Below are positions 23,245-29,239 of a stretch of 48,561 nt of DNA, piece by piece. Origin of the DNA: an uncultured Archangium sp. GTDB lineage: Bacteria; Myxococcota; Myxococcia; Myxococcales; Myxococcaceae. The stretch is taken from contig CAIVGN010000011.1 in assembly GCA_903905455.1 (NCBI GenBank), positions 1-48,561 on the forward strand. The letters run 5' to 3'. Under the pieces are notes generated by a model that saw only the letters and a list, made by a program, of their open reading frames with translations, did not search any database and was not told the origin of the DNA. Numbering within the stretch: the stretch's first letter is position 1; the number at the start of each line of letters is the position of its first letter. Position numbers and translations under genes: made by a program.

Positions 23245-24231
23245 TCAGGCCGACCAGCCGACGCGGTTCCGGCCCGCGCGCTTGGCGGCGTAGAGCGCCT
23301 CGTCGGCGCGGTGCATGAAAGCCTCGATGGTCTCGGGCGCGCGGTAGAGCGTGCCGCCCATGGTGGTGGTGATGCGGATGCCCTGCTCGTTGCCCGGGTG
23401 GGCGAAGGCGCCGATGGCCGCGCGCAACGCCTCGGCCGGGAACCGCGCCGTCTCCTCGGTCACGTCCGCGAGCAGCACCATGAACTCATCGCCCCCGATG
23501 CGGCACGCGAGGTCGGTCTTGCGGGTCTTCTCGCGGAGGATCTTCCCCACCTCGCGCAGCACGAAGTCGCCGGCCGCGTGACCGAGCGTGTCGTTGACCG
23601 GCTTGAAATGGTCGAGGTCGATGGCCAGCAGCGCGAGCCCACTGCCCAGGGCCCGCGCCCGGTCGATGAACACCGGGAGTTCGGCGTCGAAGGCGCGCCG
23701 GTTCGAGAGCCCGGTGAGGCCGTCGGTGCGCGCGGTCTCTTCTTCCTGGCTCAGGCGGCGGGCGGTGAAGTCGAGGCGCTTGATGGTGTCTTGCAGCTCG
23801 GTGTTGCGGCGGCGGAGGCTGGCGACGAGGTTGCGCTCGGTGTCCACGAGGAACACGCAGGCGCGGCGCAGCAGCGTGCAGATGGCGCCCGGGTGGCTGA
23901 TCATCAGCGCCGCCATGCCGGCCTGGTCGAGCGCGCGCAACTGCACGGGCGTGGTGGCCACGAGGGTCGCGCTGCGGCGATGGCCGGGGTTGATGAAGGA
24001 CAGCTCGCCGAAGTAGCTGCCGGGGCCGTAGGTGCGCACCGTGGCACCGCCGTGAATGCGCGCTTCCGCCTCGCCCTCGAGCAGGAAGTACACCGTCTCA
24101 CCCGCGTCCCCCTCGGCGAAGATGATCTCGTTCGCGGCGCAGGTGCGCGTGGTGCCGGCGCCCAGCAGCGCCTCCACGTCGTCGGCGACGAAGGCGTACA
24201 GCGCGGAATCAGGGGGGAAGTTCGAAGGCAT
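23245..24231 (-). CDS. Cyclic-nucleotide-binding diguanylate cyclase (cNMP-GGDEF)
   Basis: A 328-aa cytoplasmic protein. Residues 15-125 are a cNMP-binding (CRP-like) beta-roll; its phosphate-binding region reads FGELSFINPGHRRSATL, with G75-E76-L77 and R86 at the expected places. A helical connector (130-165) leads to a complete GGDEF domain (168-325). The active-site GGDEF is at 246-250, the inhibitory I-site RKTD at 237-240 precedes it by exactly five residues, and LLAIDLDHFKPVND holds the metal-binding Asp. It should make c-di-GMP from two GTP under cyclic-nucleotide control and with product inhibition. A cyclase operon lies just upstream, so a cAMP or cGMP to c-di-GMP relay is a reasonable hypothesis. 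TACAGT lies 9 nt before the ATG. Confidence 0.9.
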   Translation of the reverse strand: MPSNFPPDSALYAFVADDVEALLGAGTTRTCAANEIIFAEGDAGETVYFLLEGEAEARIHGGATVRTYGPGSYFGELSFINPGHRRSATLVATTPVQLRALDQAGMAALMISHPGAICTLLRRACVFLVDTERNLVASLRRRNTELQDTIKRLDFTARRLSQEEETARTDGLTGLSNRRAFDAELPVFIDRARALGSGLALLAIDLDHFKPVNDTLGHAAGDFVLREVGKILREKTRKTDLACRIGGDEFMVLLADVTEETARFPAEALRAAIGAFAHPGNEQGIRITTTMGGTLYRAPETIEAFMHRADEALYAAKRAGRNRVGWSA

Positions 24232-24434: not shown

Positions 24435-24773
24435 ATGAAGATGAACTCGAGCGTCATTTCGCAGAACACCAAGCCCAGCATGCCCAAGGGCTCACCGACG
24501 CAGACGCTGGCCACCGAGAACCTGCCCAGCGGCCCCGGCACCGGCGCCGCGCAAGGAGGCCCCGCGGGGATGGCCACCGACAAGATCACCCTGCGCTCGA
24601 GCTCCGCGGTCACGCCCCAGGAGGGCCCGGCCGGGCTCTCGGGCCAGTTTGACGGAGGCATGGCGGCCCAGGCCTCGGCGAAGGTCAAAGAGCAGATCCT
24701 CTCCATGGCCCAGCAGGCGGTGAGCACCCAGGCCAACCAGGAACCGCACAAGGCTCTCTCGCTGCTGCAGTGA
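24435..24773 (+). CDS. Small unknown protein
   Basis: A 112-aa protein beginning MKMNSSVISQNTKPSMPKGS. It is low in hydrophobics, rich in Ser/Thr/Gly/Gln for the first 75 residues and so probably disordered, then a single amphipathic helix (MAAQASAKVKEQILSMAQQA). There is no signal peptide or Cys. The in-frame upstream extension is rejected because its composition is not coding-like. A TTGCAC...TATCTA pair (24334-24360) may be its promoter, giving a leader of about 70 nt. It converges on the nuclease gene 14 bp away. Disorder plus a terminal helix is compatible with a regulator or secreted effector, but nothing identifies it. Confidence 0.6.
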   Translation: MKMNSSVISQNTKPSMPKGSPTQTLATENLPSGPGTGAAQGGPAGMATDKITLRSSSAVTPQEGPAGLSGQFDGGMAAQASAKVKEQILSMAQQAVSTQANQEPHKALSLLQ

Positions 24774-24787
24774 CGGGCGGTCGGTCG

Positions 24788-26107
24788 TCAGCCCCTGGGT
24801 TGACACTCGTTTTCGAGGAGCGCGAGCGTCTTCCGGAAGTCCTCGGCCTCAGCGATTCGCGTGAGTTCGAACTCGCCGTGGTGCGTGCGCACGGCGTTCT
24901 CGATCTCCTCGAGCGAGACGCGAAAGAACTCCTTCCGCTCGTTCATGCGGTTCATGCGCCTGGCCTGGAAGCTCCTGTGGAGCGCGTTTTCGAGCGCCGG
25001 CGCGTCCTGGGTGCTGATGATGGCGTGCACGTCGAACTCGAAGGGCACGGAGGCGTCTCCGAGTTCGTCGATGCGATCTTGAGGGACCAGGCGGCGCGTC
25101 ATCCCGACCTTGAAGACGTTCTCTCCGAATGAGCCCACGTTGGAGATGACATAGACGTGTCCGGCCTTGGTGAGTTGGGCCTGCGAGATGGCACGCTCAC
25201 GCGCCTGAACGTCGGCCAACTTCAGCTCGAGTTCGGCGATCTTCGCGGCCAACTTGTCGTGCTGGGCACCCTTGGCGAGCAGTACTTCCTGCCGCGCCTT
25301 CTGGAGCGCCTCTTCGCAGCGTCGCTCTTCGCGTTCCGCCTCGACCTTGGCCCGCTCGAGTTCCCGCCGCGCGACTTCCTCCTCGCGCATCTGCTCGCGA
25401 ATTCGCTTCTGCTCCTCCTTCTCCTGCTGGAGCTTTTCCTCGTACTCGTAGGCGAGGTGAAGCTCCTCGAGCTTGAGCGCCACGTAGCCACGCGCGAGGC
25501 GACAGCGCTGGATCTCCACCATGCCGTCGATGGCCTCGGCGGCCTTCTCGATGCGGGCCTCCATGGCCTTCACGTTCTTGTACGAGACCTTTGCCACCGA
25601 CGCATCGCACTCTCCGTTGAAGGCGCGGAGCATCAGTTTCAGGGTCTGGTTGATCTGCTTGCGGCCCTCGACCTTGCTGCCATTCACCAGCCATTCCTGC
25701 GCGCAGGTGGCGGCGAGCTTGTCCTTCAGCATCGCCTTCTGCTGATCGCGAATGTGCCCGAGCCGTGCCTCGTACTGCTCGATGGATGAGAAATCGTAGA
25801 TCGACTTGTAGAACCCGGAGGAACGAAGGACAGCCTCCTCTTCGAGCGCCTGGTGCTCGGAGGTCAGCCTCTCGATTTCTGCCTGGAGCCGGCGCGATTC
25901 CGCCTCTGCATCGCCGCGAACGCGGGCTGCTTCGCTGCGCGCGACGCGGACCTCCGCCTCGAGGCGTTGCTTCTCGGCCTCGAGATCCAGCACGGGCCGG
26001 AAGCGCTCCTCGAGCTTCTGGTTCGCCTTGCGTGCCCGATGCCAGAGCACCGCGAACACCACGCCCAGTGCAGCGCCCATCACCACCACGATGTCCAATG
26101 CGACCAC
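24788..26107 (-). CDS. Membrane-anchored DUF4041 / GIY-YIG nuclease (SNIPE-like)
   Basis: A 439-aa protein in four parts. An N-terminal membrane anchor (residues 4-21, VVMGAALGVVFAVLW) is followed by a coiled coil rich in Glu/Arg (30-95). A DUF4041-type domain (about 95-245; YDFSSIEQYEARLGHIRDQQ) leads through a second coiled coil to a T5orf172-type GIY-YIG nuclease (316-400). In the nuclease, HVYVIS (317-322) and FKVGMTRR (332-339) are the GIY and YIG strands, E373 in ALENALH is the likely metal ligand, and NERKEFF closes the domain. This architecture is that of SNIPE, an inner-membrane nuclease reported to cut phage DNA during injection in E. coli. The GTG start has a GGGGG stretch nearby. 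The gene is divergent from an unknown lipoprotein operon. Confidence 0.88.
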   Translation of the reverse strand: MVALDIVVVMGAALGVVFAVLWHRARKANQKLEERFRPVLDLEAEKQRLEAEVRVARSEAARVRGDAEAESRRLQAEIERLTSEHQALEEEAVLRSSGFYKSIYDFSSIEQYEARLGHIRDQQKAMLKDKLAATCAQEWLVNGSKVEGRKQINQTLKLMLRAFNGECDASVAKVSYKNVKAMEARIEKAAEAIDGMVEIQRCRLARGYVALKLEELHLAYEYEEKLQQEKEEQKRIREQMREEEVARRELERAKVEAEREERRCEEALQKARQEVLLAKGAQHDKLAAKIAELELKLADVQARERAISQAQLTKAGHVYVISNVGSFGENVFKVGMTRRLVPQDRIDELGDASVPFEFDVHAIISTQDAPALENALHRSFQARRMNRMNERKEFFRVSLEEIENAVRTHHGEFELTRIAEAEDFRKTLALLENECQPRG

Positions 26108-26306
26108 GAAGCCCCCTCGCGCGTGCGTAGGCAGGTTGCGATGCCACCCTGCCTCGGCACACCGTCCCCCTGAGGTGTGTCAGCCAAGGTCAGACTCCGA
26201 GAGCCACATCGCGCGCGGGCGAGGGTCGAGCGAGGACCTCCGGTGTCACACCCGCACGTCATGGTGCCCCCGCACGCAAGGCAACTCGGTTGGAGGGGGC
26301 GACGGC

Positions 26307-28043
26307 ATGGGGCGACGAGGTCTGGGAGTGGTGGGACTGACGTTGGTGCTGAGCGGTTGCGCGACGGTCAATGAGCAGCGCATCACGCACCTCGGGGAGG
26401 CGCGACAGACGGAGACCTTCGGAGGCTTCGACGCGAAGGAGAACACCGTGTCCCTCGAGGCGAGGAAGGGCCGCGTGGTGCTCAGCTACTCGACGGGCTC
26501 GACGTGCTTCACCGACGTCACCACCACCACGCCGCGCACCATCGAGGTGGTCCGCACCGGCACCGGGGGCGCCGTCGCACGGGCCGTGACCGGCGCCCTC
26601 CTGGGTGGCGGCACCCTGGTGGGGCTGGGGCTGTACGGCGCGGAGAATGGGAGACCGGCCAACACCGATCTCACGGCGACTGAGTGGCGGACCGGCAGCT
26701 TCGTCACCGTGGGCATCGGCGTGGGCACCGCCACGGTGCTCGGCGTGGTGGCCCTCGTCGAGGCCGCGCACGGCGCTGACTCCGTGGAGCCCGCCCCACC
26801 TCTCGTCGAGACTCGCCACGCCACCCGTCGTTGCGAGCCCCAGGGCATCGCCGAGCGCAAACTCGAACTGGTGTCCTTTGACGGCACCCGAACGCCGGTC
26901 ACCACCTTGACGACCGGTCGGGCCTTCGTTCCCACCGACGTCGCGGCTTCGTGGCTCGCCGCCGACCTGCCGCGGGTCATCGACGTCGACCTCGCCCAGA
27001 CCTACCGCCCGAAGTGGACGGAGCCAGTGCTCGAGCTGCTCGCGCAGCACCTCGACACCGCGGGGGCCTGGCAACTGTACTTGCGCGAGTTCCCCCAGGG
27101 CCCACGCGCGGCCGGCGCCCGCCGTCGGGTGGGCGAACTCGAGGGCTCCGCGAGGTTCGCCGCGGCCGGCCGCGCCCTCGACGAGAAGGAGCTCGAGCGC
27201 GCACGCTCCCTCTTCGACGAAGGGGTGAATTCCGGAGCGAGCGACGAGCCGCTGCGCGTGCGCCTGGTCGCCGCCGAGGAAGCAGTGAAGGCTGCGGAAC
27301 AGGAGCGCCAACGACAGCGGGACGCACAGTGGGGGCCGTTCTCGGAGTTTCGGGCGCGCGCGAAGAACCGCGATCTCGTCGGGCTGCTGCGCCAACTCGG
27401 TGCCTCGTTGCAGCGCCGCGCGAAGATGCAGGAACTCGCCGACCGGGAGCGACACAAGAACGACGACGCCGCACGCGAGGAGGACGTTCAGGTGCTCGCG
27501 TACTTCCCGGAAGTGAGCGGGCAGTTCACGTACTTGAAGGCGCTCGACCACGACCATGGGGAGGCGCTGTTCATGGCCAACGATGGCGCCTTCGTGATGC
27601 GCCTGAGCCCCGGCGACTCGTTCTCGGCGTACCCCGGGCAGTTGGTAAGGCTCACCATGCACAACCGCGGAGAGCGGATGCTCATGACCACGGGCAAGCG
27701 ACTGCCGGTCTTCATTTCCGGCGCCTCGCCCACGCACGTGCGCCGCATTCCCGGCTTCGTCCCCAACCGCACCAGGGAACGGGCGCTCGAGAAGCGCATC
27801 GAGGCCGAGCTCACGGCGAGCCTCGCGCTGATGCGCCGCCAGGCCGGCGCCAAGGAGGGGGAAAGCGAAGGGATGCTGCTCCGTTTTCCGGCGGTGCAAC
27901 TGAGCTGGAGCGACAACGGCGACGCCACCGCCGAGCTGCGCGACGAGGAGGGCCACATCCCCTACTGCATCGAACTGGGTCACCCGTGTAGCGGGGCGAT
28001 GGCCGAGTCCGTGAGCCTCGAGCAACTCCTGGAGGGCAAGTGA
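26307..28043 (+). CDS. Large unknown lipoprotein
   Basis: A 578-aa protein with a lipoprotein signal (MGRRGLGVVGLTLVLSGC; lipobox L-S-G-C) and a GGAGGGGG ribosome-binding site before the ATG. Two Gly-rich hydrophobic segments follow (about residues 92-112, GALLGGGTLVGLGLYG, and 132-155), so it may insert into a membrane. Residues 170-330 are mixed and contain a TPR-like helical stretch (ARFAAAGRALDEKELERARSLF). Residues 390-470 look beta-rich (VLAYFPEVSGQFTYLKALDH). No known domain is recognised. It overlaps the downstream gene by GTGA and is divergent from the SNIPE-like nuclease (199-bp gap). Confidence 0.8.
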   Translation: MGRRGLGVVGLTLVLSGCATVNEQRITHLGEARQTETFGGFDAKENTVSLEARKGRVVLSYSTGSTCFTDVTTTTPRTIEVVRTGTGGAVARAVTGALLGGGTLVGLGLYGAENGRPANTDLTATEWRTGSFVTVGIGVGTATVLGVVALVEAAHGADSVEPAPPLVETRHATRRCEPQGIAERKLELVSFDGTRTPVTTLTTGRAFVPTDVAASWLAADLPRVIDVDLAQTYRPKWTEPVLELLAQHLDTAGAWQLYLREFPQGPRAAGARRRVGELEGSARFAAAGRALDEKELERARSLFDEGVNSGASDEPLRVRLVAAEEAVKAAEQERQRQRDAQWGPFSEFRARAKNRDLVGLLRQLGASLQRRAKMQELADRERHKNDDAAREEDVQVLAYFPEVSGQFTYLKALDHDHGEALFMANDGAFVMRLSPGDSFSAYPGQLVRLTMHNRGERMLMTTGKRLPVFISGASPTHVRRIPGFVPNRTRERALEKRIEAELTASLALMRRQAGAKEGESEGMLLRFPAVQLSWSDNGDATAELRDEEGHIPYCIELGHPCSGAMAESVSLEQLLEGK

Positions 28044-29239
28044 AGGGGCCCCTGGTGGTCATCGGGATGCTCAGCGTGGCGCTCGGGGTGACGCTCACGC
28101 TGCTGGTCCAGCGCGCGCCCGCCGCTGCGCTCGCCGTCGGCGGCGTCGACGTGGCCTCCACTTCGCGCGAGGCGGCCTGCACCTGTGACGGGGGCGAATG
28201 CGTGCAGGGCCGCTGCGTGATGTCGGGCGCGTGCTCCCGAGACTCCGACTGCGACGATGGCCTGCCTTGCACGGCCGAGTGGTGCGTCGCCGGGGCGTGC
28301 ACCGGTGGCCACCGGTCCGGGGCGTGCGAACTCAAGGACGCCGACGCCGGGGTCTGCGAGTTCGGGTTCTGCGAACGCCCCACGGGGTCGGGGTGTGTCA
28401 CCGATCTCGACTGTGCACCGAGCGCCAACGCCTGCCTCGAGCGCGCCTGCCTCTCGGGCGCATGCACGCAGGGCTCGCGGGCCCCGGGCAGCGACTGCGC
28501 GACCGCCCTGGGCCGCCCCGGAACGTGCGACCAGGGCGCGTGTCTCGCCAGCCCCGACAGCGAGCGCCGACTGCGCTTCACCCTGCCGACGGCCGAGGTG
28601 ACCAAGCTCGAACGAGACCTCGAAACGCGGCTCGCGAACAACCTGCGCTACGACATGAAGGCGGTGCTCGTGGCGCTCCATGGGGGTGGCTACAACCTCG
28701 TGCTCCACAACCGCCGCTCGCGGGCCGAGGTGCGCGGCCTGTGCGACCCGTCGTTCGTGGCCTTCGACCTCGCGGACTACACCGCGGCGACGAACTGGAA
28801 GTCAGCCCACTTGCAGGTGTGGCTCGAGCCCGACCGCGCCGGCTGGTCCGTCCCCACGCGCGGCAGCCGCTTCGCCGTCGACCAGGGCCGGGCCGACAGC
28901 GCGCTGGGCGCGTTCGGCGTCGTCAACGTGCGCACCTTTCGCCTCTGGCTCGAGCGCGCCTTCATACCGCTCGATGACGCGCCGTCCTCACGCACTCCGA
29001 GGTCGGACCTCGAGGCCCCACACGTGGTGCCACCGCTCCCGCCGAAGCCCGACGCTGGGCCGACCACGGTGGGATTCGTCGACGCTGGCCCGCCTCCCGC
29101 GCTCTCGGGGCGCCAGGCGCTCTCCCGGGCGTGGGATGCGTTCGGTGACGGTCGCATGGAAGAGGCCCGGAGGCTGGTGCGCGTGGCGCGGGCTCAAGGC
29201 GCCAGAGACTCCGAACTCGAAGACCTGCTCACCCCGTGA
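28040..29239 (+). CDS. Cys-rich membrane-anchored protein
   Basis: A 399-aa protein with an N-terminal membrane segment (VVIGMLSVALGVTLTLLV) that may be an anchor rather than a cleaved signal. Residues 45-175 contain about 22 cysteines in DUF4215-like spacings (CTCDGGECVQGRC, CSRDSDCDDGLPC). Residues 180-310 form an unknown alpha/beta domain (AVLVALHGGGYNLVLHNRR). A Pro/Asp/Ala-rich linker precedes a terminal helical pair. The GTG overlaps the stop of the large lipoprotein (GTGA), so both are made together. They may form a two-component envelope structure. Function is unknown. Confidence 0.75.
   Translation: MKGPLVVIGMLSVALGVTLTLLVQRAPAAALAVGGVDVASTSREAACTCDGGECVQGRCVMSGACSRDSDCDDGLPCTAEWCVAGACTGGHRSGACELKDADAGVCEFGFCERPTGSGCVTDLDCAPSANACLERACLSGACTQGSRAPGSDCATALGRPGTCDQGACLASPDSERRLRFTLPTAEVTKLERDLETRLANNLRYDMKAVLVALHGGGYNLVLHNRRSRAEVRGLCDPSFVAFDLADYTAATNWKSAHLQVWLEPDRAGWSVPTRGSRFAVDQGRADSALGAFGVVNVRTFRLWLERAFIPLDDAPSSRTPRSDLEAPHVVPPLPPKPDAGPTTVGFVDAGPPPALSGRQALSRAWDAFGDGRMEEARRLVRVARAQGARDSELEDLLTP

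What the first reader, a model, noticed from the sequence alone, without database searches (positions are those of the whole stretch)
24788..26107. SNIPE-like phage-entry nuclease in a myxobacterial-type genome
The protein has every element of the DUF4041/GIY-YIG membrane nuclease: an N-terminal membrane anchor, coiled coil, DUF4041-like region and T5orf172-type GIY-YIG domain with E373 and two Arg after the YIG strand. SNIPE in E. coli is reported to sit in the inner membrane and cut phage DNA as it enters. No other recognisable defence gene, integrase or island boundary lies nearby, so it may be a solitary chromosomal defence gene. The small unknown gene 24435-24773 converges on it and an unknown lipoprotein operon diverges from it.
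Basis: partly seen in the sequence, partly recalled or inferred. Interest (0 to 1): 0.75.

Follow-up and report, generated by a model that had tools for sequence, protein, structure and literature searches.

The report
Myxobacterial SNIPE phage-entry nuclease gene
The gene encodes a myxobacterial version of SNIPE, a recently described membrane-anchored enzyme that cuts viral DNA as it enters a bacterium; it is a genuine but ordinary member of that known family, and comparing it with relatives shows that the rod holding the cutter away from the membrane varies in length between species.

Summary
It matches the PADLOC PD-Lambda-1 (SNIPE) model from residue 27 to 434 at E = 1.2e-152, and E373 aligns with the catalytic E414 of E. 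coli SNIPE. So it is SNIPE (Saxton et al., Nature 2026): a new member of a known family, with phage-DNA cleavage at injection as the inferred function. It is no surprise in this lineage: 37 of 96 family genomes have a match, 33 of them substantial. In a tree the window copy is sister to the main myxobacterial SNIPE clade. It is the only copy in six congeneric genomes and lies just past the end of a block shared with congeners, so it is probably accessory. New, modest points from relatives: SNIPE sits at fixed genus-specific sites, with clean empty sites and decayed relics. In Corallococcus-like genomes and one other genus it follows a Hhe-type defence gene by 13 bp. The stalk length varies in helix-register steps while every other spacing is constant; the window copy has the shortest stalk of the clade. 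None of this was tested experimentally.

The parts
24788..26107 (-). SNIPE / PD-Lambda-1 gene, 439 aa, GTG start
   Evidence: PADLOC PD-Lambda-1 E 1.2e-152; PHROG 1847 E 9e-140
26112..26118 (-). Shine-Dalgarno-like GAGGGGG, 4 nt before the start codon
   Evidence: read directly from sequence
26048..26107 (-). single transmembrane helix, residues 1-20, followed by basic HRARK (suggests N-out, C-in)
   Evidence: Kyte-Doolittle 2.58; helix 2-96 in AlphaFold2 model; topology by positive-inside rule (inference)
25970..26008 (-). juxtamembrane motif ERFRPVLDLEAEK, residues 34-46, shared with membrane-anchored SNIPEs of several phyla
25826..25969 (-). coiled-coil stalk, residues 47-94, the shortest of the myxobacterial clade
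25472..25825 (-). DUF4041 region, residues 95-212 (Pfam core 157-212 = 25472-25639)
   Evidence: PF13250 E 1e-20; pLDDT about 90-97 over most of it
25166..25471 (-). long charged helix linking DUF4041 to the nuclease, residues 213-314
   Evidence: AFNGE-to-GHVY distance 154 in 31 of 31 rows
24887..25162 (-). T5orf172 / GIY-YIG nuclease domain, residues 316-407
   Evidence: PF10544 E 2.3e-18, PF13455 E 9.7e-17; Slx1/HIGLE-like fold
24989..24991 (-). codon of E373, equivalent of the catalytic E414 of E. coli SNIPE
24435..24773 (+). convergent 112-aa orphan gene (neighbour, not part of the system)
   Evidence: no match in 59 related genomes
26328..29239 (+). divergent lipoprotein gene and a following Cys-rich protein gene (neighbours)
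   Evidence: first gene absent from five congeners; no Pfam hits for either

Best explanation
The gene encodes a SNIPE (PD-Lambda-1) anti-phage nuclease. One N-terminal helix anchors it in the inner membrane; a short coiled-coil stalk projects the DUF4041 domain and a GIY-YIG nuclease into the cytoplasm. By analogy with E. coli SNIPE, DUF4041 binds DNA and the phage tape measure protein during injection and places the nuclease on the entering phage genome, which is cut before it can replicate; membrane tethering keeps the nuclease off the host chromosome. Shown here: gene, domain order, catalytic residues, fold class, family membership. Inferred: membrane insertion, nuclease activity, tape-measure recognition and phage defence in this host.
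For: Full-length PADLOC PD-Lambda-1 match E 1.2e-152; DUF4041 and T5orf172 above Pfam cut-offs; E373 = E414 and about 30 further invariant nuclease residues shared with the characterised E. coli protein; transmembrane helix at residues 1-20; GIY-YIG-like predicted fold. The tree places it with the myxobacterial SNIPE clade at 100/99 support. E414A, loss of DUF4041 or loss of the membrane anchor disables or misdirects E. coli SNIPE (PMC13190303). Relatives show presence, clean absence and decay at fixed sites, as expected of a defence gene.
Against: No experiment in any myxobacterium. The DUF4041 face that contacts tape measure proteins differs (W257 of SNIPE is H217 here). The phage range cannot be predicted. 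Sequence cannot show that the gene is expressed. The nuclease-domain model has only middling confidence (pLDDT 75.5) and fold matches are below Z 8.
Confidence: 0.9

Rival explanations
1. It is a DUF4041/GIY-YIG membrane nuclease with a non-defence role, such as DNA uptake, plasmid exclusion or chromosome processing at the membrane.
For: The gene is long resident at fixed genus-specific sites in Myxococcus-like and Corallococcus-like genomes, which looks less mobile than typical defence genes; older annotations call relatives 'chromosome segregation ATPase'.
Against: Patchy occurrence, clean empty sites and decaying relics; adjacency to a Hhe-type defence gene in relatives; carriage by prophages and plasmids; E. 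coli SNIPE does not block plasmid transformation (PMC13190303).
Confidence: 0.06
2. It is a SNIPE carried by a recent mobile element (prophage or island) rather than a resident gene.
For: Lowest GC3 of the window, 0.85 against about 0.86-0.98; only copy among six congeners; it lies at the end of a syntenic block.
Against: No tRNA, no flanking repeats of note, no integrase, transposase or phage gene recognised among the window genes scanned; the protein is sister to the resident myxobacterial clade, not to phage copies.
Confidence: 0.2
3. The gene is intact but silent or non-functional.
For: Relics of SNIPE occur in relatives, so decay is common.
Against: Full-length frame, all catalytic residues retained, a plausible ribosome-binding site.
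Confidence: 0.05

Closest known systems
SNIPE / PD-Lambda-1 of E. coli (PMC13190303; PMC9519451)
   Same: Domain order, single N-terminal membrane helix, DUF4041, GIY-YIG domain, catalytic Glu, single-gene system.
   Different: About 50% identity over the 57% of the query covered by BLAST pieces; 439 versus 500 aa, with a shorter N-terminal part and C-terminal tail; W257 replaced by H; ManYZ contact untested, although EIIC/EIID-type genes exist in this genome.
SNIPE homologues of other Myxococcaceae (Archangium, Corallococcus, Myxococcus)
   Same: 63-74% identity, same juxtamembrane motif in nearly all, identical DUF4041-to-nuclease spacing.
   Different: Stalk 51-109 residues longer than in the window copy; other chromosomal sites; a Hhe-type gene just upstream in Corallococcus-like genomes and G014.
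Phage ES18 gp19 and other phage-borne DUF4041 proteins
   Same: Same architecture and the juxtamembrane motif.
   Different: Carried by temperate phages, in ES18 close to the tape measure gene; 45% identity.
Slx1, HIGLE and UvrC GIY-YIG nucleases (solved structures)
   Same: Predicted fold of residues 304-439.
   Different: 10-22% identity; DNA-repair or related enzymes without DUF4041 or a membrane anchor.

Membership tests
SNIPE / PD-Lambda-1 | DUF4041 domain | tested here: met
   PF13250 E 1e-20, 73.8 bits against cut-off 27
SNIPE / PD-Lambda-1 | C-terminal GIY-YIG nuclease domain | tested here: met
   PF10544 67 bits against cut-off 20; Slx1/HIGLE-type predicted fold
SNIPE / PD-Lambda-1 | catalytic Glu equivalent to E414 | tested here: met
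   E373, invariant in 27 aligned sequences
SNIPE / PD-Lambda-1 | membrane-targeting N-terminal region (one TM helix in 59% of homologues) | tested here: met
   hydropathy 2.58 over the first 20 residues, continuous helix 2-96; localisation itself not testable
SNIPE / PD-Lambda-1 | full-length match to the family model | tested here: met
   PDLC03977 residues 27-434, E 1.2e-152
SNIPE / PD-Lambda-1 | single-gene system | tested here: met
   neighbours are convergent and divergent; no co-directional partner
SNIPE / PD-Lambda-1 | cuts phage DNA during injection; binds tape measure protein | not testable with these tools
   needs phage and cell experiments
SNIPE / PD-Lambda-1 | association with ManYZ (seen in E. 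coli; not needed for all phages) | not testable with these tools
   EIIC- and EIID-type families are present side by side in the genome at C211; interaction unknown
GIY-YIG nuclease superfamily | GIY Tyr, Arg after the YIG strand, catalytic Glu | tested here: met
   Y319, R338/R339, E373 invariant; the Tyr of the YIG element is Phe here (F332), as in many relatives

The most novel reading that the evidence does not exclude
The coiled-coil stalk between membrane and DUF4041 is a length-tuned ruler: it gains and loses turns only in helix-register steps (7, 11, 18, 51 residues) while all other spacings stay fixed, so that species set how far the nuclease stands from the membrane to suit the phages they meet. 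The window copy is the shortest setting found in this clade.
Probability: 0.25. Interest if true: 0.5.

Novelty: new member of a known kind. Interest (0 to 1): 0.28.

Why it matters
It places SNIPE, characterised so far in E. coli, in social predatory bacteria where about a third of sampled genomes of the family carry it, at fixed chromosomal sites with visible gain and decay. The clade gives a natural series of stalk lengths with constant flanking domains, which would let the reach or ruler idea be tested directly.

Tried and rejected
The 70%-identical hit in 'Comamonas sp. KCTC 72670' looked like transfer to Betaproteobacteria. Its 1,049,120-base contig has the same length as contig 1 of G066 and the match lies at the same place; GTDB puts G066 in the window's own family, so this is a mislabelled record, not transfer. 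I expected the genome to lack ManYZ-type permeases; it has EIIC and EIID families side by side. A Hhe partner for the window copy: no DUF4011 anywhere in the genome. An empty site for the window itself could not be made, because the right-hand anchor lies on other contigs in congeners. PADLOC hits to Pycsar, Zorya MotB, PDC-S27 and TIR effectors among window genes are partial hits to generic cyclase, OmpA/MotB-like, ATPase and cNMP-binding domains. Sequence search against solved structures found no relative.

Full report
Observation. The frame at 24788-26107 on the minus strand is open for 439 codons from GTG 26107, the first start after the upstream stop, with a GAGGGGG element just before it. 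Its GC content is 63.8% against about 72% for the window. Most of this is amino-acid composition (GC2 0.36), but GC3 of 0.85 is also the lowest in the window.

Family. Pfam finds DUF4041 (residues 157-212, E 1e-20) and T5orf172 (316-407, E 2.3e-18), both far above cut-off. PADLOC's PD-Lambda-1 models cover residues 27-434 at E 1e-152. PD-Lambda-1 is the system renamed SNIPE and shown in E. coli to be an inner-membrane GIY-YIG nuclease that cuts phage DNA during injection (PMC13190303). Using the PD-lambda-1 protein annotated in phage PhiR26_1 as the reference, E373 of the window protein aligns with the catalytic E414; Y319, R338, R339 and E373 are invariant in 27 sequences from several phyla.

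Structure. An AlphaFold2 model of the full protein (mean pLDDT 82) gives one helix over residues 2-96, a compact helical DUF4041 region, a long helix and a small alpha/beta domain. The nuclease domain alone (pLDDT 75.5) finds GIY-YIG nucleases first in Foldseek (HIGLE, Slx1; best E 0.07) and by structural alignment (Slx1 Z up to 7.8, HIGLE 6.5, UvrC 3.6); the best unrelated rows are at about 4.4. These numbers are modest but all point the same way as the sequence.

Distribution. In the window's family 37 of 96 genomes have a match; after setting aside two weak partial matches and two short remnants (G017, G084, G065, G079), 33 carry a substantial copy. In its own genus it is the only one of six. 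In a maximum-likelihood tree it is sister to the other 27 rows of the main myxobacterial clade (100/99). A second, more distant DUF4041 lineage (about 40% identity) coexists in some of these genomes.

Surroundings. Window genes from 13 kb to the GGDEF gene ending at 24231 are collinear with a congener, G004 (part of this block in G003 and G002). The 112-aa gene, SNIPE and the lipoprotein gene have no match in congeners, nor does the DUF362 gene at the threshold used; the next shared gene tested (33.5-36.6 kb) sits on another contig in all three. SNIPE therefore stands at the edge of a variable stretch. There is no tRNA, integrase or notable repeat, and apart from SNIPE none of the window proteins scanned with PADLOC gives a specific defence hit.

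Relatives' neighbourhoods. In Myxococcus-like genomes SNIPE lies at one site near the L-serine dehydratase gene; in Corallococcus-like genomes at another site, 13 bp behind a 1,750-aa DUF4011-helicase-nuclease protein that PADLOC names Hhe / PDC-S37. The same pair occurs at a different site in another genus (G014). Three genomes show an empty site: DNA flanking a roughly 3.16-kb stretch with SNIPE and one other gene in L098 is nearly contiguous in G062 and G075, with a similar break in G076. Two others keep only about 90-114 N-terminal residues. Gain, loss and decay at fixed sites fit a defence gene under changing phage pressure; this is inference.

Stalk. In 31 myxobacterial rows (some from the same genome under two handles) the distance from DUF4041 (AFNGE) to the nuclease (GHVY) is always 154 residues, and the membrane-proximal motif begins at residue 31-36. 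Only the stretch between them varies: 126 in the window, then 177, 195, 206, 217, 224 and 235, with steps of 51, 18, 11, 11, 7 and 11. The lengths share a phase at the alpha-helix period of 3.6 (resultant 0.86; 0.1% of random sets reach it), as expected if only register-preserving changes survive in a coiled coil. The 31 rows are related, so this counts distinct lengths, not independent events. The paper reported variable N-terminal length but, as far as I found, not this pattern. A short motif like [RK][FY]xxI[LV]D[LV]EAE is shared by membrane-anchored SNIPEs from Myxococcota, Bacteroidota, Spirochaetota and Pseudomonadota, and was not found in TM-less ones.

Conclusion. A genuine, intact SNIPE family member, most likely a phage-entry nuclease; new member of a known kind. 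Literature searches found only three held papers naming DUF4041 and none linking PD-Lambda-1 with myxobacteria or Hhe.

Noticed in passing
L087:3656-10496; L086:3551-10388; L091:9350-16172: A Hhe-type DUF4011-helicase-nuclease gene ends 13 bp before SNIPE, same strand, in Corallococcus-like genomes and at a different site in G014: a possible two-gene defence operon.
   Followed up: partly
L098:7426-10585 versus L113, L114, L115; L111, L112: Empty sites for a 3.16-kb SNIPE-bearing insert next to the L-serine dehydratase gene, and N-terminal SNIPE relics at the same site in two genomes.
   Followed up: partly
L037:4225-6230; L038:3717-5374: A small 'NINE protein' gene sits about 20 bp upstream of SNIPE on both Hymenobacter and Leptospira plasmids, a possible membrane partner gene.
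   Followed up: no
L016 / G066 (BNCN01000001.1): The record 'Comamonas sp. KCTC 72670' is a Myxococcaceae genome by GTDB placement; the label looks wrong.
   Followed up: partly
L036:1641-5107: In phage ES18 the SNIPE homologue (gp19) lies close to the tape measure gene, suggestive of superinfection exclusion tuned to tape measure proteins.
   Followed up: no
window:17044-19980: CHASE2-class III nucleotide cyclase behind a FecR-domain gene, near a cNMP-binding GGDEF protein (23245-24231): a possible cyclic-nucleotide to c-di-GMP signalling set conserved in the genus.
   Followed up: no
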